NCBI RefSeq assembly: GCF_947623445.1
Contig: NC_135244.1
Span: forward strand, 1,922,001-1,986,000
Source: Clavelina lepadiformis
Lineage: Eukaryota > Chordata > Ascidiacea > Aplousobranchia > Clavelinidae
Reading direction: 5' to 3'
DNA length: 64,000 nt
Position 1 is the stretch's first letter. Each line of letters begins with the position of its first letter. The notes beneath the pieces are model-generated. The model was not told the origin of the DNA. It made no database searches and saw nothing but the letters and a program-made list of their open reading frames with translations. Made by a program: the position numbers and the translations under genes. Shown piece by piece: positions 13,569-24,701 of the stretch.

Positions 13569-14529
13569 CAGCTTTGCTTCTGTTTTTCTCTAACTTTCTG
13601 TACTTGGAACGTTGTTGTTACTAATTTTGCATCTACAGTAGACAATGCAAGACAGGGTGCTTTATCACCATATTTTATGTACGAAAAACTTTCAAGTCCG
13701 TGTTTTCATATATAACTTAGTTGTAGATTCACTGTTATCAAACGTTTTGTACTTAATCATTTTATCCAACTTGTTCATAATTTTTTTAAATCTTTGTTTT
13801 TTATGTTTTGCATCAGATTTCTCACTGGCCTTTGCATGTCGTTTTACCTTGTAGATTAGTTTTAGAACAACCAAGTGCTTAACATATGACTTAATTTTTT
13901 TTTATTCCACGACAAAGATTCTATTAGCAAAGATTATACTAGCTATCATGGTATCCTTACCTCATAAGCATGATCATGCCCGATCCTATGTTTGAATTTG
14001 TTTTTTTTAACGTGCTCATCCTACATGGCTACTTCTTTGATTTTGTCAACAGTTGTCTGTTTTCATCTTGATAATATTTACTCCTCTTGCCATTTAAGGA
14101 AAATTAGTGGTCAATCGTACTTTAATGGTGCTAGCCAGCCATTGCATCACCTCACGAGATGCCCAAGGCAATTGGGTTCAAGATTCAAGCTCTGGAGCTC
14201 ATTCCCAAGCTGGAAGTTTCTTCTTTTGTTTTTATTTGCACTTGTCAAGCAATCTTCATCAGCTGCAAATACGTTTTAATAAAACCGTGTTCTTTTGGGT
14301 TCATACTTGGTTAATTTTTTAAGTTAAACAATCCTGAAGCCACAGAAAATGTCAGTTATCTATGTGTGCAGCTTATCAATTATTCCATTAAATCTAATGT
14401 TACCTGTTTTTTAATTCATTGTCACTTGTACATCAAACCGGCATGTTAACACTCTTCAACGATTAATATAGATTAAGCAACGGAAAATAATGTAAAAACT
14501 TAGAAAATTACTAAGGCTTTGTTTACAAA
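13569..14529. other. Eph 3' UTR and spacer
   Basis: No coding support. A candidate AATAAA lies at 14278-14283, about 710 nt after the Eph stop. The segment ends where the WDR76 duplication begins; GGCTTTGTTTACAAAA sits immediately before that border. Confidence 0.5.
14278..14283 (+). terminator. Candidate polyadenylation signal of Eph
   Basis: AATAAA followed by a T/G-rich stretch. No stronger candidate was noted before the duplication. Confidence 0.35.
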
Positions 14530-14589
14530 ACGTAAGGAAACTTTCAGGTAAGGTAACTATTGGAAGTGTGTTATTGCGTAAGGCATTTC

Positions 14590-15661
14590 AATGCCTTGAA
14601 AATCAAATGAAGATAGAGACACACTGCTGCTGGACATGAGCGCTTTTTGAAATGTTTGATGTTGCAGATCTAACGAACGAAGCACGCCATCAAAGCTGCA
14701 ACTATAAAGAAGATGAGGGGATGCCGTTGCAAACAATAAGTTAGACACTGGTCTAGTATGAACGGACCAGCTATACAGTCCGTCATTTGTGTCTGCATTG
14801 TTTAGATCCCAAATTCCAGACTTGCTACCAGCAGCTAAAATCAACATGACGTTTCTTGGATTAAAAGACTGAAGATTCTATTATCAACGACTTTCTCCCA
14901 AGTGCATGGAAGTTTTTTAATACTTTCTATGTATGTGTTAGCTGTAATCGAAACACTTGTTGTAGCAGCAGCAACACTAGTTTTCTTGGTTTCATTCGCA
15001 AATCCTTTAGATAAACGGCACTTAAACTGATTGTAGTCATCAAAACACACTTCTTCATCACTTGCGTTCTCATTATGATCAGGATCAAAACCTATAGCAA
15101 CCATAGGGTGCTCATCATATGATATTGGTTGTTGAAAATTCAGTTTATATCCGTCAGTGTTTACACTGCAAGCATTTCTGAGCGCAATCTTTTCCGAATA
15201 AGTGGTTTATTTTGCAACCTGATTGACTTTCTTCTTGCTGCCAAGGCTTTTCCACGTCTTTTCTTTGTTGTTTTTGATGCAGTAGGCGCTACCTTTACAG
15301 GTTTTAAAGTGGCTTTGAAATTAGCAACAGCTTGATGTAAATCAAGGCGTTGAAGAAGCTCTTGCCTTTTTTGTTGAACCTTTTTTCGCCTTTTAATCAC
15401 CTGCAAATGGCTCTTCTCATCTTCATCTGTATCCACTGAGTCATCAGAGGTTGAAAGATCTTCATTACTGACGTCTTTCTTGACATTTACTTTATAATCC
15501 TGGAACGAGATGTTTTTTGAAGCTGATATCATTTCTTTTCCATTATTCTTAGTTTCTCTGATGCTTTTTTTCAAAGTCCTTTCGTCGAAGGTTTCCGTTT
15601 TCGAACAATTTTGCTTTCCATTTAACCTTTTGCAATGACTGGTATCCATAACAGCAATCAA
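14590..15661 (-). pseudogene. WDR76: WDR76 pseudogene, truncated tandem copy
   Basis: Minus-strand partial copy of the gene at 17851-19548. It matches from the ATG at 15661 to the SSFDFQ segment, after which the last third (the later WD repeats) is missing at the duplication deletion. The frame is broken at least twice: near 15165-15190, and near 14868, where four bases present in copy B (GTAA) are absent. A nine-base in-frame loss near 14820 removes KVG from the first WD repeat. Small fragments remain open (166, 87 and 96 codons), which explains its gene-like look. Both the break and the missing propeller blades argue against a working protein. Confidence 0.9.
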
Positions 15662-15878
15662 TATAGTTGGTAACTTAACAAAAGAAATATGTATTTCGAT
15701 AATTGCTACATCAACATGATTGATTTATGTTAAGTCTTTAATTCAAATTTGCTACTTTTTGAAAAAAATTAGGATCTCACTAAAAACCTGAAATAAAGGA
15801 AACAGATTTTGTTGGGAATCATAGTTTTTAATTTCAGCCTTTTAGTGTGTCCTAAAAATTATGCATTTAATAAACGAA

Positions 15879-16025
15879 GTGACTGATTCACCGCATGTAT
15901 AGGTCGCACAGCCTAATGTTAAACATAAGCGGTTAGGTTACCATGTTATAAAATTTAAGTTTAGTTAACAAGAAACTGTAAAAAATAGCTTCGAACGCAC
16001 AATTTTTTCCGTGAAATAGTGGCAG
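15879..16025. mobile_element. MITE family 1 copy inside duplication copy A
   Basis: Starts AGTGACTGATTCACCGCATG and ends CCGTGAAATAGTGGCAG, parallel to the copies at 4069 and 29001, with GTTAGGTTACCATGTTATAA inside. The left half is missing in duplication copy B (19693-19784). Confidence 0.55.
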
Positions 16026-16100
16026 TTTTCATGGAATAGGCCTATGATAAAACATCCAACACCCAACTCAATTTTCAATGGATTTTAACATTGACCAAGT

Positions 16101-16215
16101 GAACGCACTTCCATTGCATCTGAGCGTTTCTGCGCATCACTCTTATCATTTGTGGTTGTTTGGCGCATCCAAAATCTTGCTGAAACAGTGAAAACGGCCA
16201 TACTCTGCAGTCTGG
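16101..16215 (-). mobile_element. MITE family 2 fragment (copy A)
   Basis: Ends with CATACTCTGCAGTCTGG; on the minus strand it reads CCAGACTGCAGAGTATGG, then GGATGCGCCAAACAACC, as in the copy at 24153-24438. Only one half is present. Its duplicate is 19861-19975. Confidence 0.55.
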
Positions 16216-17850
16216 CGTAACGTTACGTGTCTTGTGCTATTTCTGGCTAACTGAGCGGGGAACTACCTGGAAATTTGTGATTTAGAAGTTCTATGAAATT
16301 CCAGTGCAGATTAAAAATAATTGACATTTTATAAACAAAATGATAAAATCTTTTGAAACAATTTTTTTGAAAGTTTGTTAACTGAGATATTCTTAAATAA
16401 AAAAATAACAAATGGGATTAATTTATACAGGAATTGTAAAAACGAATGAGTCTGAATGAAAGGATAATACGGTATGTCTGTGACCGATCTAAATATAGTC
16501 TTTACGGATAATAAGAAACTAATACTGTAATTTTAACAGTTTTACACAAGAAAATACAAAATATTATAAAATACTTGTACATAATTAACTACACTGGAAA
16601 TTTTTAAGCACGAAAGTAAAAGAAGCAGAAAAATATCTCATTGTGAAACTACTGTTCATTACTGGTCATCGTGGAAAATATGTTGCAAGAAATGATGTTT
16701 TACATCAATCCGTAAAGTCTTAATTGAGTTGCTCGGCTTGCCAAGCACACTCATCACACAAGTCATCGCAAAAATAAAGAAACTATCCCAAAATATACTT
16801 TTATCTGTATGCTATCAGTGTTTTGCAGTTTCATTCAATTGACTGGCAAAATCGTTTTTTATCCATAAATGGGGGTTATCAGTATTTGATTAGTATGAAA
16901 GTCGTAATGTTGAAACGCATGCCACTATAACTACAAAACTCAATTGGTTTTCCTAGCCAATCTTTCAAAGACATATTTCAGCATCTTCTCTATCTCTTTA
17001 TTATAACCTGGCGTAGAAAAATGACAACAGCTACAAATAGGATATTTCTCAGCATGCGAAGTCTTTGACAACATAGCTTACTTAATCTCAAACCACTTAC
17101 TTTGAAGGCTAGCCTAATTAACAAAGTGGTTTGTGCTGTGCGTTGAAGTAGACAATCATTTTGTCGGACGCCCATTACCGTAGGGCATAACGAATACGGT
17201 AAACCGCAAATAGATTAGTCTGTGAATTGAAATTTTCAACTAAAATGACAAATCTATACTAATATACTGTAGGTTAGCCAACGTAAGGAAACTTTCAGGT
17301 AATGTAACTTTTGGAAACGCGTTATAACTAGAACGTATTACGGTTATTTCCCGAAATAAACCACACATTTTACGTATTTTAAAGAAGCTCGCTAGTTATT
17401 TTGTAAACATAAACAAAGCCTATGTGGTCACCATGCTAATGATCACCTCTGCACAAATGGCACGATTCTGTTAAAAGATGAAGGCTGGCTGCAAACACCA
17501 GTTTAATGTTAGCTACTTATTTTTGCTAGATAGGGGAATGCTTTTCTGACTTCAACAAATTTCATTGACAACGCATTTTTGAAGATCTTTGTACTAAAAA
17601 GTTAATACAGAAGATATGAATACGAAATAACAATATGAAAGAAATATTAGCGAAAAATGAAAGAACATTTACATACCTATTTTTTTTTTAAATAACTAAC
17701 TTGAATAATTTTAAGCACAGCAGCTTTATATACACATTGTTAGTATTAGCTATATATAGTGTGTCAGAAAAAAGACTCAACTACAACCGATTTTTGATAT
17801 AAATACCATAAGTTTGGCAGATCATTATGTGTGGCTTGAAGTGTTGATAT

Positions 17851-19548
17851 CTACGACCCGAATGTGTATACCTTTCCACTTGAATTGCCACCAGCTAAAA
17901 CGTCATAAGTAGGGTGAACGCAAGTAAGTGAACAAATGCTATGCAAATTTTCATCTTGCAAAGAATGCATGTACTTTAGTTTGCCGTTGAATATATCTAT
18001 TTGTCGCACTGGCCGATTCATACTTCCAACAACAACAATATCCTCTTGCCGTGGGTGCCAAATGGCTCGAAAATTGCTAAGCCACCTTCCGGTATAATTA
18101 TTATGGTTCACAGACGCAACCATGTGAGTATCCATAATGTTTGAACTGTCATAAATTCTAATTTTGTCATCAAGTGATGTAGTTAGCAATTTGTCACCAG
18201 ATAAGGGAGAAAAATATGCAGAGTCCACAGTTTTTTGTGCCTCATTCAAACACTTTACTTCCCTAGCAAGCTTTCGAAAGTCAAAAATTTTCACCTTACA
18301 ATCATTGCTTGAAGTAGCAAAGTAGTTTCTATGCCGGGGATGTACGGATATGCACTTCACAACTCGATCGTGAGCTTGGTGTGTGTCAATCTTGCTTTGC
18401 AGACGCCGATCACAAATTACAACTTCTCCCCTGTAACATCCTACAATAATGACATCACATCCAATGTCTTGAAAATCAAATGAAGATAGAGACATACTGC
18501 TGCTGGACATGAGCGCTTTTTGAAATGTTTGATGTTGCAGATCTAACGAACGAAGCACACCATCAAAGCTGCAACTATAAAGAAGATGAGGGGATGCCGT
18601 TGCAAACAATAAGTTAGACACTGGTCTAGTATGAACGGACCAGCTATACAGTCCGTCATTTGCGTCTGCATTGTTTAGATCCCAAATTCCAACCTTACCA
18701 GACTTGCTACCAGCAGCTAAAATCAACATGTCGTTTCTGGGATTAAAAGTAAGACTGAAGATTCTATTATCGACGACTTTCTCCCAAGTGCATGGAAGTT
18801 TTTTAATACTTTCTATGTATGTGTTAGCTGTAATCGAAACACTTGTTGTAGCAGCAGCAACACTAGTTTTCTTGGTTTCATTCGCAAATCCTTTAGATAA
18901 ACGGCACTTAAACTTGTTGTAGTCATCAAAGCACACTTCTTCATCACTTGCGTTCTCATTATGATCAGGATCAAAACCTATAGCAACCATAGGGTGCTCA
19001 TCATATGATATTGGTTGTTGAAAATTTAGTTCATATTCGTCAGTGTTTACACTGGAAACATTTCTGAGCGCATATTTTTCCGAACCAGGTTGTTTATTTT
19101 GCAACCTGAGTGACTTTCTTGCTGGAAAGGCTTTTACGCAATGTCTTTTCTTTGCTGATTTTGATGCAGTAGGCGCTACCCTTACAGGTTTTAAAGTGGC
19201 TTTGAAATTAGCAACAGCTTGATGTAAATCAAGGCGTTGAAGAAGCTCTTGCCTTTTTTGTTGAATCTTTTGTCGCCTTTTAATCACCTGCAAATGGCTC
19301 TCCTCATCTTCATCTGTATCCACTGAGTCATCAGAGGTTGAAAGATCTTCATTACTGACGTCTTTCTTGACATTTACTTTATAATCCTGCAACGAGATGT
19401 TTTCTGAAGCTGATATCATTTCTTTTCCATTATGCTTAGTTTTTCTGATGTTTCTTTTCAAAGTCTTTTCGTCGAAGGCTTCCGTTTTTGAACAAGTTTG
19501 CTTTCCATTTAACCTTTTGCAATGTCTGGTTTCCATAACAGCAATCAA
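17851..19548 (-). CDS. WDR76: WD repeat-containing protein 76, intronless
   Basis: A complete 565-residue frame, ATG at 19548 and TAG at 17851-17853. The N-terminal 200 or so residues are charged and probably disordered (KRNIRKTK, DDSVDTDEDEESH, KSAKKRHC). Residues about 225-565 form a WD40 propeller with WDR76 hallmarks: GSKSGKVGIWDL, SFDGVLRSLDL, SSFDFQD, VHPRHRNYFATSS, SAYFSPLSGDKLLTT, TGRWLSNFRAIWHPRQED, VVGSMNRPVRQIDIF and LAGGNSSGKVY, near-matching the human protein (about 626 residues). WDR76 is nuclear, related to yeast Cmr1, linked to DNA damage and reported as a CUL4-DDB1 substrate receptor. It has no introns here, unlike vertebrate orthologues. A truncated tandem copy lies at 14590-15661. 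Confidence 0.95.
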   Translation of the reverse strand: MIAVMETRHCKRLNGKQTCSKTEAFDEKTLKRNIRKTKHNGKEMISASENISLQDYKVNVKKDVSNEDLSTSDDSVDTDEDEESHLQVIKRRQKIQQKRQELLQRLDLHQAVANFKATLKPVRVAPTASKSAKKRHCVKAFPARKSLRLQNKQPGSEKYALRNVSSVNTDEYELNFQQPISYDEHPMVAIGFDPDHNENASDEEVCFDDYNKFKCRLSKGFANETKKTSVAAATTSVSITANTYIESIKKLPCTWEKVVDNRIFSLTFNPRNDMLILAAGSKSGKVGIWDLNNADANDGLYSWSVHTRPVSNLLFATASPHLLYSCSFDGVLRSLDLQHQTFQKALMSSSSMSLSSFDFQDIGCDVIIVGCYRGEVVICDRRLQSKIDTHQAHDRVVKCISVHPRHRNYFATSSNDCKVKIFDFRKLAREVKCLNEAQKTVDSAYFSPLSGDKLLTTSLDDKIRIYDSSNIMDTHMVASVNHNNYTGRWLSNFRAIWHPRQEDIVVVGSMNRPVRQIDIFNGKLKYMHSLQDENLHSICSLTCVHPTYDVLAGGNSSGKVYTFGS

Positions 19549-19692
19549 TATAGTTGGTAACTTAATAAAAGAAATATGTATTTCGATAACTGTTAAATCA
19601 ACATGATTGATATATGCTAAGTCTTTGATTCAAATTTTCGATTTTTTGACAAAAAATTAGGATCTCACTAAAAACCTGAAATAAAGGAAACA

Positions 19693-19784
19693 GGTAGGTT
19701 ACCATGTTATAAAATTTAAGTTTAGTTATCAAGAAACTGTAAAAAATAGCTTCGAACGCACAATTTTTTCCGTGAAATAGTGGC
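19693..19784. mobile_element. MITE family 1 remnant in copy B
   Basis: Right part only: GTTACCATGTTATAAAATTT through CCGTGAAATAGTGGCA. It is the counterpart of 15935-16025 in copy A. Confidence 0.5.
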
Positions 19785-19860
19785 ATCTTTAATGAAATAG
19801 GCCTATGATAAAACATCCAACACCCAACTCAATTTTCAATGGATTTTAACATTGACCAAG

Positions 19861-19975
19861 TGAACGCACTTCCATTGCATCTGAGCGTTTCTGCGCATCA
19901 CTCTTATCATTTGTGGTTGTTTGGCGCATCCAAAATCTTGCTGAAACAGTGAAAACGGCCATACTCTGCAGTCCT
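19861..19975 (-). mobile_element. MITE family 2 fragment (copy B)
   Basis: Duplicate of 16101-16215, ending CATACTCTGCAGTCCTG. Confidence 0.5.
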
Positions 19976-20936
19976 GCGTATCGTTATGTAACTTGTGCCA
20001 TTTCCCGCTAATTCAGCGGGGGAACTACCTGGAAATTTGTGATTTAGAAGTTCTATGAAATTCCAGTACAGATTTAAAAAAACTGACATTTTGTAAACAA
20101 AATGATAAAATCAATGTTTTTGAAAATTAGTTAACTGAGATATTCTAACATTAAAAAAAATAACAAATGGGATTAATTTATACAGGAATTGTAAAAACGG
20201 ATGAGTCTGAATGAAAGGATAATACGGAATGTCTGTGATACCTATGAATGAGTGGGTGGTCTGAGTGATTAGATGAATTGTCAAAAACGATAATTTCAAA
20301 GTTTAAGAAAAATAAAGGTAGAAATGTGACCGACCTAAAATTAATTTATAGGATAACAAGAAACTAATACTGTAAATTTAACAGTTTTACACAAGAAAAT
20401 ACAAAATATTATAAAATACTTGTACATAATTATCTAAACTGGAAAATTTTAAGCACGAAAGTAAAAGAAGCAGAAAAATATCTCATTGTGAAACTACTGT
20501 TCATTACTGGTCATCGTGGAAAATATGTTTCAAGAAATGATGTTTTACATCAATCCGTAAAGTCTTTATTGAGTTGCTCGGCTTGCCAAGCACACTCATC
20601 ACACATGTCATCGCAAAAATAAAAAAACTTTCCCAAAATATACTTTTATCTGTATGCTATCAGTGTTTTGCAGTTTCATTCAATTGACTGTTATCAGTAT
20701 TTGATTAGTATGAAAGTCGTAATGTTGAAACACATGCCACTATAACTACAAAACTCAATTGGTTTTCCAAGCCAATCTTTCAAAACGATATTTCAACATC
20801 TTCTCTATCTCTTTACTATAACCTGGCGTAGAAAAATGACAACAGCTACAAATAGGATATTTCTCAGCATGCGAAGTCTTTGACAACATAGCTTACTTAA
20901 TCTCAAACCACTTACTTTGAAGGCTAGCCTAATTAA

Positions 20937-20949
20937 CCCTTTCCTTCCC
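20937..20949. repeat. piggyBac terminal inverted repeat (transposase 3' side)
   Basis: CCCTTTCCTTCCC directly after TTAA, a perfect inverse of 23580-23592. Confidence 0.95.
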
Positions 20950-21047
20950 GAATTATTTTCCCTTACTTCAAAAATTCTGAAATTTAGGCCATGTGTTACT
21001 TTTGTCTTCCTTGTACCAAAACTAAAGAAAAAATTCGGAAATTTTGG

Positions 21048-21087
21048 TTGCCTTGGCAACAGCGTAATGTTGCCAAATGGCAACATT
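21048..21087. repeat. Subterminal palindromes of the piggyBac element
   Basis: Two palindromes in a row: TTGCCTTGGCAA (21048-21059), and a 22-bp one at 21066-21087 with 10-bp arms AATGTTGCCA and TGGCAACATT. They lie about 110 bp inside the terminus and match the motif repeated at the other end, so they are likely transposase-binding sites (inference). Confidence 0.75.
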
Positions 21088-21277
21088 GGTAAGAAATGGT
21101 ATGGATATCTGTAATCTTTCACAAAACACTTCATAATTTCTTAACACAATTGTAATGTTATCGTTTAGTACATGTTAAAAAAACCAAAATACATATAACT
21201 GGCGCCGCAAATTGGCTGTCATAAAACAGAAAAGAACAAGTTATTGCCTTTCAAAACGTACTCTCTGCTGGCCAAAA

Positions 21278-23098
21278 TCACTTGGTGTGAAAGGCCATAA
21301 AGCAGTTGTTGCGTTCATTCAAGCATAGTCCTACGAGGCATTTGCTGCATTGCACCCGGGTGTAGCCAGATGGGCAATATCTGCAACGCATTCTTTTTGC
21401 AATATGATGAGGCCAGTGGTGCAAACCATCATACCGCACATCTGTAACTGGCAGGGCTTTCTTGGTCTTTTTTGAAGAGCATGTACTTTCATCATTCAGA
21501 GATGGTCTACCACGTTTCTTTATCTTTTGCTTTCCTGCCAAAGTTAGAGCAGAAGCGATACTGCTACGGAAATCTTTTAATGGAAGATACCTTGGCTGGT
21601 TGTTCTGAGCCAAATGTCTACGATATAACAGCCACGCATTTAGCACTGCTACATCTAAACAATAATACACAATGCGCATGTACCATTTTTTGCTCCGGAT
21701 GTCTGTGCGATATAATTCCAGCATCATGTCGCACAGGCCTACTCCTCCCATGTGCTGGTTATATTCTTTCACAACGTATGGCCTCTCCACATCGATCCTT
21801 TTCTTCTCAGCAACACTCCAGCGCTTGCACTTGTCTGCTGGATCAATGCTGCAGTACGTCGAAATCAAGTGGACAGCTTTGTTGTCGCACCACTTCACAA
21901 TGCTAACTCCTTCAGTATCTTCACATTTGTAGTCCAGGCTTCCACGTCCGTGCTGTTTCAGTTCTTTATCAGTCTTTAGTGTGCATCCTTTCAGCCTGTT
22001 TGATCGGATGGTGCCAACTGACCATATATTTTGCTGTTTGAGTAGACATACAAGATCAACCGAACTGAACCAGTTATCAAAATACACTTTGAAGTTCTTG
22101 TCTTCTGGAAGATTGTTTACAAGTCTCATGACAACATTTCCAGCAACGCCTAGGTTTCCAGGCAACTTCATAGCTTTGCCAGTATAAACCATGAAATCGT
22201 AAATCATACCAGACATGCCTGCTCTTGCAAATACCTTGAAGCCCCAACGATGAGGCTTATTTTTTATATATTGTTTGATCCCAGAACGCCCTTTGAAAGG
22301 GATCATCTGTTCATCAACAGAGTGGCGCTCTTCAGGTTCAAGCTGTGACATGGCATCACGCAGTCTTTTCAAAAGAGGGGACACTTTAAAAAGTGGATCG
22401 TAGTCTGGGTGGTCACGGGCCTTCATTTCGGCATTATTATTGAAGTGAATATATCTGAGATGATCTTGAAAGCGATTTCTTGACATTATGTCCGCTATCA
22501 AAGGAAAGCGAGAAAAATTGGACCAGTATGTGGTATATGCTCTGCAGGGAAAAATTCCTGTAAATAGCAATATTCCAAAGAACTGTTCTATTTCCTTTGC
22601 CGATGTACCAACAACTTTTCCATCTTTAGCCAGAGCATAACAGTTCGTTTGCTCTGCTATGTACGCCATGCAATCATCGTTTAAAAATAATTTAAAATAC
22701 TGCAATGGTGTCGGGATTTCATCTGGTGGAGTTGAAAATTCACCTTTAAAAGAAACGTCTGGAAATGTGTATGGCTTTTTCCTCCATCTGTACTTTTTTT
22801 TCTGCTGTGTATTAGTTTGGTCCTCCCCCGCGTCCGTTTCAGAAGAGATGCAACTTAACAATACTTGATCTTCTTCCTCGTCGATTGAGCCACTTTCCTC
22901 CACTTCAATTTCTAATGGCCCAGCATTTATATCTTGAGCTGGATTATAATCTGGATCAACGAGATCATCATCAACATACATTTTCTCTTCATCGTCATCG
23001 CCATCCTCTAGATCTGACTCAATTCCATCCGGCAGAAAAATATACTTAATCACGTCATCAACTCCAAATCTCTTAGCCATCTTATATAACAGGAACAC
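21278..23098 (-). CDS. piggyBac transposase (DDE_Tnp_1_7) with Gly at the third catalytic position
   Basis: A 606-residue uninterrupted frame; ATG at 23098 or, likelier, at 23080 (MAKRFGVDD). An acidic N-terminal region (about 20-95) is followed by the transposase domain (about 125-500) and a C-terminal Cys-rich zinc-binding motif (CRYCPSGYTRVQCSKCLVGLC, about 572-592). The first two catalytic aspartates are present: D262 in SVDEQMIPFKGR and D341 in VYFDNWFSS. The third, the D of GGVD in insect piggyBac (D447), is Gly here (G454 in HMGGVGLCDMM, codon GGC); the nearby D457 is kept. The protein cuts and rejoins DNA at TTAA in active relatives. Loss of the third aspartate predicts loss of catalysis unless the neighbouring acid substitutes. 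Confidence 0.93.
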   Translation of the reverse strand: MFLLYKMAKRFGVDDVIKYIFLPDGIESDLEDGDDDEEKMYVDDDLVDPDYNPAQDINAGPLEIEVEESGSIDEEEDQVLLSCISSETDAGEDQTNTQQKKKYRWRKKPYTFPDVSFKGEFSTPPDEIPTPLQYFKLFLNDDCMAYIAEQTNCYALAKDGKVVGTSAKEIEQFFGILLFTGIFPCRAYTTYWSNFSRFPLIADIMSRNRFQDHLRYIHFNNNAEMKARDHPDYDPLFKVSPLLKRLRDAMSQLEPEERHSVDEQMIPFKGRSGIKQYIKNKPHRWGFKVFARAGMSGMIYDFMVYTGKAMKLPGNLGVAGNVVMRLVNNLPEDKNFKVYFDNWFSSVDLVCLLKQQNIWSVGTIRSNRLKGCTLKTDKELKQHGRGSLDYKCEDTEGVSIVKWCDNKAVHLISTYCSIDPADKCKRWSVAEKKRIDVERPYVVKEYNQHMGGVGLCDMMLELYRTDIRSKKWYMRIVYYCLDVAVLNAWLLYRRHLAQNNQPRYLPLKDFRSSIASALTLAGKQKIKKRGRPSLNDESTCSSKKTKKALPVTDVRYDGLHHWPHHIAKRMRCRYCPSGYTRVQCSKCLVGLCLNERNNCFMAFHTK

Positions 23099-23205
23099 AA
23101 GGAACTATAAACAGTAATTTTTAACAGATAAGCAGCAATAATCAAAGCTAAAATCAATCCTTCAAATCACACCAAATCACTTACACTTACTCGCCTAACT
23201 TACCA

Positions 23206-23225
23206 TTGTTGCCGATTGGCAACAA
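23206..23225. repeat. Subterminal palindrome of the piggyBac element
   Basis: TTGTTGCC-GATT-GGCAACAA, a 20-bp palindrome just upstream of the transposase start. Confidence 0.75.
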
Positions 23226-23510
23226 CGAAAATTAAAAAATTCCTAAAAGCGAAGTACTTGAAATGGAAGTCTGACCTTCTGGTTATAAGCTGTGCCATTC
23301 CTAACCAACATGTTCTCAAACAAAATTGAGGAATATAATCTGTCTATCCCTTATAAACTCTCACTCAACATGTTGCACTTTTAGCAGTTTCTACCAGCTC
23401 TCTGAGCACGAGTGTTAGTCAAAGCAAACCAAGAAAACTAAAAATTAGTCAAGCGAAACAAAAGTCTCAGAGCAGTCTGATAAGATTATATTTATGACCT
23501 AATGTTCCCA

Positions 23511-23579
23511 TTGTTGCTGAATGGCAGCGGATAAGGGAGAAAAGCATCACAAAAGTTGATGTTGCCGAATGGCATCGCT
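23511..23579. repeat. Two further subterminal palindromes of the piggyBac element
   Basis: TGCTGAATGGCAGC (about 23515-23528) and GTTGCCGAATGGCATC (about 23561-23576) repeat the TTGCC-GAAT-GGCAA core with small changes close to the right terminus. Confidence 0.65.
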
Positions 23580-23592
23580 GGGAAGGAAAGGG
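23580..23592. repeat. piggyBac terminal inverted repeat (transposase 5' side)
   Basis: GGGAAGGAAAGGG directly before TTAA, a perfect inverse of 20937-20949. Confidence 0.95.
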
Positions 23593-23750
23593 TTAACAAA
23601 GTGGTTTGTGCTGTGTGTTGAAGTAGACAATCATTTTTTCGGACGCCGTTTACTGAAGTAGGGCATTACGAATACGGTAAACCGAAAATAGATTAATCTA
23701 TGAATTGAAATTTTCAACAAAAATGACAAATCTATACTATATACTGTAGG

Positions 23751-24701
23751 CTAGCTCACAAAACTTTCCAAAGTGTATATACCCTAAATTAACCTAAAAC
23801 TAATCCCTTTTAAGGCTTTAGCCTAAACCAAGCTCTCACTTTTCATGACTAAGTCACTAAGCTAGACTGCAAATTGAAATGAATGCTAAATTTCAACGTA
23901 AAACGACATATTTTTTCCCAAAATCTAACTAATACCCTTCAACCCAAACTTTCACGACTAGCTTAACTAACCTCAAAAATAAATCTGGACTAAAAATAAA
24001 GTCAATTATTGACGAGATTTGAACAGGCAAATGACGCAACTTTCAGCATTCATGATCAATTCTTAATCATTTTCCCTATTCCACTGGAATTCTTTCATCT
24101 TCTGAAACGAGAATCATTAATGTAACCTGTCAACGGAAATCTGCTGGTCACGTTGGACTGCAGAGTTTGAACGTATTCAGTTTCAGCAAGATCTTGGATG
24201 CGCCAAACAACCAAAAATGACAAGTGCTATGCGCATAAATGCTCAGATGCAATAGAAGTGTGAACCTCGCAGTACTGTACACAGTTTGATTTAATCAATC
24301 TATATATCAATTCAAAACTTGGGTGCACAAAAGTTATGTCCAAGTGATTAAGTGCAAAATAATGCACTTTAAGTGTGACACTGAAGCTTTTGAAAAGAAG
24401 TTATTGAGTGCACCTATATGCCAAGCTCTACAGTCTGGCAGTCATAGACGAGTTGAAATAGTTACTTTGTTTTTTAAATTATTTCCAGCTCTAGCCAACA
24501 GAATAACTTAAACTTTTATTATGTCATGTTATTGTTAGGTTAGGCCACTTTGTTTTTTTTTAACATTTAATTGCTCAAATACTCAACATATTTCTTCTGA
24601 AAATTTGTTATTGCAGAGGTTACGGTTACAAAATATTATGGTGAGGTCAAATTAGTCATGTCTTGTAAATCTGCAGAAAATCATCTAGTGATCTAGTTCA
24701 T
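23751..24701. other. Spacer before ARMC9
   Basis: Unique DNA after the duplication end, a MITE family 2 copy (24153-24438), then the likely ARMC9 promoter and 5' UTR. No coding support. Confidence 0.5.
24153..24438. mobile_element. MITE family 2 copy
   Basis: Left end TTGGACTGCAGAGTTTG, right end GCTCTACAGTCTGG (inverted match). The inside parallels 4906-5164 (CAAACAACCAAAAATGACAA, GTACACAGTTTGA, GTCCAAGTGATTAAGTGCAA). No target duplication was found around it, so it is older or its edges are off by a few bases. Confidence 0.6.

What the first reader, a model, noticed from the sequence alone, without database searches (positions are those of the whole stretch)
17095..23610. piggyBac insertion with its exact empty site in the tandem duplicate
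Copy B has TTAA-CCCTTTCC...GGAAAGGG-TTAA inside AGCCTAA|TTAA|CAAAGTGG; copy A has the same flanks with a single TTAA near 17113. This proves the element ends to the base and orders events: insertion after duplication, or precise excision from copy A, which piggyBac elements are known to perform.
Basis: partly seen in the sequence, partly recalled or inferred. Interest (0 to 1): 0.75.

Follow-up and report, generated by a model that had tools for sequence, protein, structure and literature searches.

The report
Young sea-squirt piggyBac, altered catalytic site
A jumping gene of the piggyBac type sits in one copy of a duplicated stretch of sea-squirt DNA while the other copy keeps the untouched landing site, and, more surprisingly, the nine full-length copies found in the assembly all carry a transposase that lacks one of three amino acids thought essential for jumping.

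Summary
A 2656-bp piggyBac element (20937-23592; 13-bp perfect inverted repeats; TTAA on both sides) interrupts copy B; copy A has the single TTAA at 17118-17121. The genome is Clavelina lepadiformis kaClaLepa1.1. It holds nine full-length copies, all 2656 bp, TTAA-flanked, with an open 600-aa transposase; four of the nine have uninterrupted paralogous empty sites. Copy A (14583-17279) is not a plain tandem: it is a truncated, frameshifted copy of B's DNA between 46-bp direct repeats found nowhere else, so B is probably the source. Among 73 scored relatives no other complete transposase exceeds 29% identity, and the catalytic domain shows 3 nonsynonymous to 6 synonymous changes (P 0.01-0.03, suggestive only). 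Either a piggyBac amplified without its third aspartate, or an unseen partner moved it.

The parts
20937..23592 (-). piggyBac element, 2656 bp (strand given is that of the transposase)
   Evidence: Nine full-length copies of identical length in the genome
20933..20936 (.). TTAA target site, low-coordinate side
   Evidence: TTAA at both ends of 9 of 9 copies
23593..23596 (.). TTAA target site duplication, high-coordinate side
20937..20949 (+). terminal inverted repeat CCCTTTCCTTCCC
   Evidence: 13/13 match to the other end
23580..23592 (-). terminal inverted repeat, other end
21278..23080 (-). transposase ORF, 600 aa (P0001), Pfam DDE_Tnp_1_7; Gly448 aligned to piggyBac D447; Asp256, Asp335 and Asp451 aligned to D268, D346 and D450
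21047..21084 (.). two subterminal palindromes GTTGCC-N2/N4-GGCAAC (21047-21060, 21069-21084), possible binding sites of the cysteine-rich domain (inference)
   Evidence: the same scan also finds two imperfect ones inside the ORF (21362, 22154)
23208..23576 (.). three subterminal palindrome-like sites at the other end (23208-23223, 23513-23528, 23561-23576; 0, 2 and 1 mismatches)
17118..17121 (.). empty TTAA site in copy A
   Evidence: 139-bp identical run to B's joined flanks spans it
14583..17279 (.). copy A: truncated copy of the 5' part and upstream DNA of the WD40 gene; reading frame broken
18458..23757 (.). copy B, the likely source, with the element inside
17851..19536 (-). open WD40-repeat protein gene of copy B (561 aa from its first ATG)
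14529..14574 (+). 46-bp direct repeat, left of copy A
   Evidence: only two places found in the genome
17280..17325 (+). 46-bp direct repeat, right of copy A (41 of 46 identical)

Best explanation
A complete, very young piggyBac transposon inserted by TTAA-specific cut-and-paste into copy B, after a 2.7-kb stretch of B (5' part of a WD40 gene and its upstream DNA) had been copied into a nearby break to form the truncated copy A. Copy A therefore shows the original empty site. Shown: ends, TTAA duplication, empty site, nine full-length copies, 46-bp repeats round A, broken frame in A, open frame in B, relative divergences. Inferred: the direction B to A (A is truncated and flanked by a repeat), the order of events (from divergence), the piggyBac chemistry (from homology). 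For mobility I hold it slightly likelier (about 0.5 against 0.4) that the element's own Gly448 transposase moves it than that a partner outside this assembly does. The confidence below is for identity and order of events, not for the enzyme question.
For: Ends and TTAA in 9 of 9 full-length copies. DDE_Tnp_1_7, E 9.9e-79; piggyBac 6x67, E 7.5e-29. A versus B: 120 differences in 2524 aligned sites and 17 indel events; upstream stretches 75 of 1467 = 5.1% (three bins summed). Element copies: 33 variable sites in all; largest difference 22 of 2656; this copy versus L009 0 of 2656; outside the ORF at most 8 of 853 = 0.9% from this copy. An element sitting in B since the duplication would be expected to have gathered about 63 changes of its own (my arithmetic: half of 4.75% of 2656). 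The 46-bp repeats are found only beside A. Uninterrupted empty paralogues at three further insertions: L009 and L013, L012.
Against: The divergence argument fails if the B copy is the long-resident mother of all the others, whose later offspring would share its changes. No outgroup polarises A against B. No reads or other individuals were seen. Mismatches between A and B are clustered (longest identical run 178 bp, permutation P 0.0045), so conversion between the copies may have occurred; the 139-bp run over the site is the third longest and not itself exceptional (95% point of the permutation maximum is 140).
Confidence: 0.87

Rival explanations
1. The element was in both copies and left copy A by precise, footprint-free excision.
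For: piggyBac excision can be repaired without footprints (PMC7351741, start of abstract); A's TTAA is intact.
Against: Needs the element to be as old as the duplication; its divergence from the other copies is far lower. Needs one event more.
Confidence: 0.04
2. The duplication was copied from an allele lacking the element while the insertion was already segregating, or gene conversion later restored an empty site in A.
For: Compatible with all sequence here; A/B mismatches are clustered.
Against: A segregating insertion older than a 4.75% duplication is unlikely with element copies within 0.83%.
Confidence: 0.06
3. A and B are two haplotypes wrongly placed in tandem.
For: 4.75% divergence could be allelic in a variable tunicate (recalled, no call).
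Against: A is truncated in mid-gene, has its own flanks and 46-bp repeats, carries frameshifts, and lies 1.2 kb from B. The genome note reports 117-fold HiFi and removal of 9 haplotypic duplications.
Confidence: 0.03
4. On the enzyme: the Gly448 transposase is dead and all nine copies were moved in trans by an aspartate-bearing relative absent from this haplotype or since lost.
For: In T. ni piggyBac, changes of D447 to N or E strongly reduce or abolish excision (PMC2533014, passages). DNA transposons are readily moved in trans (general knowledge). Older related fragments keep Asp. The whole ORF of the nine copies is not clearly constrained (P 0.18 or 0.05).
Against: 0 of 9 young copies carry Asp, and among 73 scored protein matches of 397 candidates the only close relatives are fragments; other complete transposases are 26-29% identical. 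No internally deleted passengers with both ends. DDE domain 3 nonsynonymous to 6 synonymous.
Confidence: 0.4

Closest known systems
piggyBac of Trichoplusia ni (PDB 6x67/6x68)
   Same: TTAA target, short terminal repeats beginning CCC, single-ORF transposase of about 600 aa with C-terminal cysteine-rich region, palindromic internal repeats near the ends
   Different: Third catalytic aspartate D447 is glycine here in all nine copies; similarity is distant (103.8 bits over residues 121-588); palindrome sequence differs (piggyBac's is recalled)
Complete bee piggyBacs with a lost triad residue (PMC10140906, passages)
   Same: Complete element with ends and long ORF but one catalytic Asp replaced (D to N at the second in M. 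dahlbomi, D to H at the third in A. compressa)
   Different: Its authors suggest those may have lost activity; here the changed form is the only young form found and spans four subfamilies
PGBD3 and PGBD5 (domesticated piggyBac genes; PMC3902484 and PMC4625184, passages)
   Same: Triad not fully conserved
   Different: Those are host genes; these are mobile-element copies with intact ends and recent insertions
Pokey of Daphnia (PMC3849761, passages)
   Same: Natural departure in the conserved aspartates (the fourth, after the triad, is Asn)
   Different: Pokey keeps the three catalytic Asp; here the fourth is kept and the third is lost

Membership tests
piggyBac superfamily of DNA transposons | TTAA target site duplication | tested here: met
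   9 of 9 full-length copies; empty site with one TTAA
piggyBac superfamily of DNA transposons | Short terminal inverted repeats beginning CCC | tested here: met
   13-bp perfect repeats; exact at 18 of 18 ends
piggyBac superfamily of DNA transposons | DDE_Tnp_1_7 transposase homologous to piggyBac | tested here: met
   E 9.9e-79, positions 1-349 of 349; 6x67 E 7.5e-29
piggyBac superfamily of DNA transposons | Footprint-free excision | not testable with these tools
   Empty paralogues at four of nine sites are equally explained by never having been filled
Canonical, catalytically competent DDD piggyBac transposase | First and second catalytic Asp (D268, D346) | tested here: met
   Asp256 and Asp335 in the alignment; not among the differences in 9 of 9 copies
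Canonical, catalytically competent DDD piggyBac transposase | Third catalytic Asp (D447) | tested here: not met
   Gly448 in 9 of 9; not filed as a canonical DDD transposase
Canonical, catalytically competent DDD piggyBac transposase | Fourth conserved Asp (D450) | tested here: met
   Asp451
Canonical, catalytically competent DDD piggyBac transposase | Transposition activity of its own | not testable with these tools
   Only recent spread and weak signs of constraint

The most novel reading that the evidence does not exclude
A piggyBac lineage that lost the third catalytic aspartate stayed mobile by its own enzyme: it founded four subfamilies and at least nine insertions with glycine in that place, its catalytic domain still under purifying selection, perhaps with Asp451, three residues on and so about one helical turn away (the D450 position), serving the metal site.
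Probability: 0.4. Interest if true: 0.78.

Novelty: new variant of a known kind. Interest (0 to 1): 0.52.

Why it matters
The empty site is a clean but ordinary demonstration of piggyBac anatomy. The transposase is the point of interest: the third acidic residue of the RNase H triad is held to be indispensable in piggyBac, and mutational work agrees. A young, whole, multi-copy family that carries glycine there, with no close complete aspartate-bearing relative found in the assembly, makes it directly testable whether a piggyBac can work without it, or whether complete elements with a dead enzyme can spread at a partner's expense.

Tried and rejected
Search for relatives outside this genome: P0001 gave none in viral contigs (6 pattern matches, none confirmed) or genome contigs (4, none confirmed); neither collection is one of animal genomes, so this says little. 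Rfam and tRNA scans of the window: nothing. AlphaFold2 of P0001 alone: mean pLDDT 32.8, useless, not interpreted. First thought that a MITE flanked copy A: rejected, since the 161-bp query covering the right 46-bp repeat matches only two places in the genome, itself and the left repeat. First thought that the C3 family shares the element's ends (TTAACCATTTCCTTTCC): rejected, that sequence points away from the ORFs, and TTAACCCTCCGTCTACC lies near the edge of the homology of L072, L073 and L074 instead. Conversion tract centred on the insertion site: not supported. A first comparison of the nine copies mixed strands, its output was cut, and it was redone (corrected); only its TTAA listing is used. 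Tandem misassembly: rejected on anatomy.
Full report
What was checked. The sequence was read directly. Copy B carries TTAA at 20933-20936, then a 2656-bp element 20937-23592 with CCCTTTCCTTCCC at each end in inverted orientation, then TTAA at 23593-23596. Copy A carries the same flanks round one TTAA at 17118-17121.

Where it comes from. The window is C5:1922001-1986000 of a 209-Mb assembly. [quoted passage not shown] Small departures: the held copy has 95 contigs against 102 scaffolds, and C1 is 28,783,666 bases against 28,789,166 printed. That paper reports 117-fold HiFi reads, QV 67.4, nine haplotypic duplications removed and an alternate haplotype deposited.

The element in the genome. The whole element matches 14 places (14 of 14 candidates scored): nine full-length copies of exactly 2656 bp and five partial ones. 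All nine have TTAA on both sides. TTAACCCTTTCCTTCCC occurs 18 times, at the two ends of those nine, with 0 in the reversed control. With up to two mismatches there are 38 hits against 23 in the control; two of the extra ones are ends of the older fragments L018 and L019. The nine copies show 33 variable sites, no length difference, and four groups: L009/L010/L011, L012, L013/L014/L015, L016/L017, where L010 is the window's copy. L009 and L010 are identical; so are L013 and L015, and L016 and L017; the greatest difference is 22 of 2656. Three groups thus hold base-identical copies with different flanks, which most simply means very recent movement.

Further empty sites. Joined flanks of the eight other insertions were searched. 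For L009, 9 places match uninterruptedly across the site (95-99%); for L013, 28 places do (93-98%), all on C9 and many at regular spacing (38 matches from 22 of 309 candidates scored, the last being one of L013's own flanks). With six of the eight joined flanks given again, 12 places span the L012 site (90-96%); the other 29 of the 41 matches are 12 own flanks, 16 copies of a repeat on one side of L016, and one weak partial hit (40 of 182 candidates scored). So four of nine insertions, the window's own included, have empty paralogues; for L011, L014, L015 and L017 none was found, and L016 has one repetitive flank. I did not read the TTAA of each of these places. The counts are lower bounds.

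The duplication. Copies A and B align over 2524 sites with 120 substitutions and 17 indel events (with longer ends, gives 123 of 2526). A begins in the middle of the WD40 gene and its frame is broken into three ORFs, while B's frame is open for 561 aa from its first ATG. Homology stops at both ends of A. Just beyond lie 46-bp direct repeats, 14529-14574 and 17280-17325, 89% alike; a search with the right one and its surroundings finds only these two places in the genome. The simplest reading is a piece copied from B into a staggered break, like a templated insertion, not an unequal-crossover tandem. That makes B the source and A the derived copy. The repeats differ more (5 of 46) than A and B do; with so few bases this is not decisive.

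Order of events. If the element had been in B since the duplication it should have about 63 changes of its own (half of 4.75% of 2656). It has none against L009 and at most 19 against any other group. Outside genes, A/B differ at 75 of 1467 sites, 5.1%, and this element differs from other groups by at most 8 of 853, 0.9%. Insertion after duplication is favoured. The exception, that the B copy is the old mother of all others, cannot be excluded without outgroups. The 139-bp identical run across the site is not unusual for this alignment.

The transposase. The 600-aa protein matches DDE_Tnp_1_7 over the full profile and piggyBac 6x67 and piggyBat 9c0f by sequence. Asp256 and Asp335 align with D268 and D346. 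Where piggyBac has GGVDTLDQM, with D447 and D450, this protein has GGVGLCDMM: glycine for D447, aspartate for D450. All nine copies have it, and a 27-base search allowing three mismatches finds ten places, nine with the glycine codon and one, the older fragment L020, with the aspartate codon. L018 and L019 also keep the aspartate codon, but they are duplicates of each other (96.5% over 3.9 kb), so the fragments make two independent witnesses. The change is therefore most likely derived and predates the four groups. Keith et al. 2008 report that all D447 changes tested impair excision; their text says D447N gave none, though their Table 2 lists a low figure for it in one assay; D450 was the least critical, and another group found D450A active in vitro (PMC2533014, passages). 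The cryo-EM paper places D268, D346 and D447 in the active site, with the calcium held by D268 and D346 (PMC7351741, passages).

Could something else move it? The genome holds at least 117 DDE_Tnp_1_7 matches (116 of 519 candidates scored). I fetched five of them from other families: four (L072-L075) keep Asp at the third position; the longest frame of the fifth, L071, stops just before the motif. Searched by protein (73 scored of 397 candidates), the relatives closer than 40% to the nine copies are only fragments (older pieces of 74-83% with open frames of 88-239 aa); next comes a 37% piece in a 203-aa frame; the other complete transposases are 26-29% identical. So no close, complete, aspartate-bearing relative was found in this assembly, and there are no internally deleted derivatives with both ends. 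A partner on the other haplotype or in other individuals remains possible.

Is the changed enzyme under selection? Among the nine copies the coding region has 10 nonsynonymous and 7 synonymous changes plus one in the stop codon, and no frameshift or premature stop. By randomised placement the whole ORF is not clearly constrained (P 0.18; 0.05 when absence of stops is counted). The DDE domain, residues 124-483, has 3 to 6 (P 0.03; 0.012 with stops counted). The N-terminal part has 5 to 0 and the C-terminal part 2 to 1, neither pointing to constraint. Three regions were looked at, so the domain result is only suggestive. Density of changes, coding against noncoding: 18 of 1803 versus 15 of 853, P 0.13. 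Zero indels against 4.7 expected from the A/B ratio, P 0.009, though this covers noncoding DNA too (all).

Other anatomy. Near the ends lie palindromes GTTGCC-N2/N4-GGCAAC, two at one end and three, two of them imperfect, at the other; two imperfect ones also fall inside the ORF. piggyBac's cysteine-rich domain binds a palindromic internal repeat (PMC7351741, passages); by analogy these are likely binding sites, which is inference.

Literature. Searches listed no paper that I could see to describe this element or an amplified piggyBac with the third aspartate lost. Lists were capped (20 of 41 shown, 10 of 5,013), most papers were seen as listings only, and no supplements were read. The nearest report is two complete bee elements with one triad residue changed, suggested to have lost activity (PMC10140906, passages). 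A survey of 79 animal species calls the DDD residues highly conserved (PMC10813416, passages). Recruitment of other acidic residues after loss of a catalytic one is told for Fanzor nucleases in PMC12324416 (passages).

Verdict. The given finding is confirmed and ordinary in kind, with its history narrowed. The transposase, not part of the finding, is the unexpected part. On present evidence self-mobility without the third aspartate and movement by an unseen partner are close to even.

Noticed in passing
window 21278-23080, residue 448 of P0001: Glycine in place of the third catalytic aspartate in all nine young copies, aspartate codon in three older fragments, two of which are duplicates of each other.
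   Followed up: yes
L018 and L019 (C5:20614997-20624412): Two places about 8.5 kb apart, 96.5% alike over 3.9 kb, each with an old truncated relative of the element (element positions 1-939, 90-91% identical).
   Followed up: partly
G000, many places: Dozens of DDE_Tnp_1_7 matches cover profile positions of about 37-256 with open frames of about 230-240 aa, as if a truncated piggyBac reading frame had itself been amplified.
   Followed up: no
window 15933-16025: A stretch of about 93 nt in copy A matches many places in the genome, mostly at 84-91%; a short dispersed repeat.
   Followed up: no
window 24155-24260: Inverted copy, 86% alike, of the region upstream of the WD40 gene (19867-19974 and 16106-16212).
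   Followed up: no
L016 right flank: A repeat, 98-100% identical in at least 16 other places over about 80 bases, begins at about the TTAA where this copy is inserted.
   Followed up: no
L009 and L013 loci (C6:19.22 Mb, C9:9.08 Mb): Two further insertions lie beside regularly spaced sister units (about 4.8 kb and about 0.75 kb apart) with empty sites.
   Followed up: partly
window 14515-14526 and 17409-17420: Short inverted sequences (GGCTTTGTTTAC; 11 of 12 complementary, read by eye) lie outside the 46-bp repeats round copy A; their meaning is unclear.
   Followed up: no
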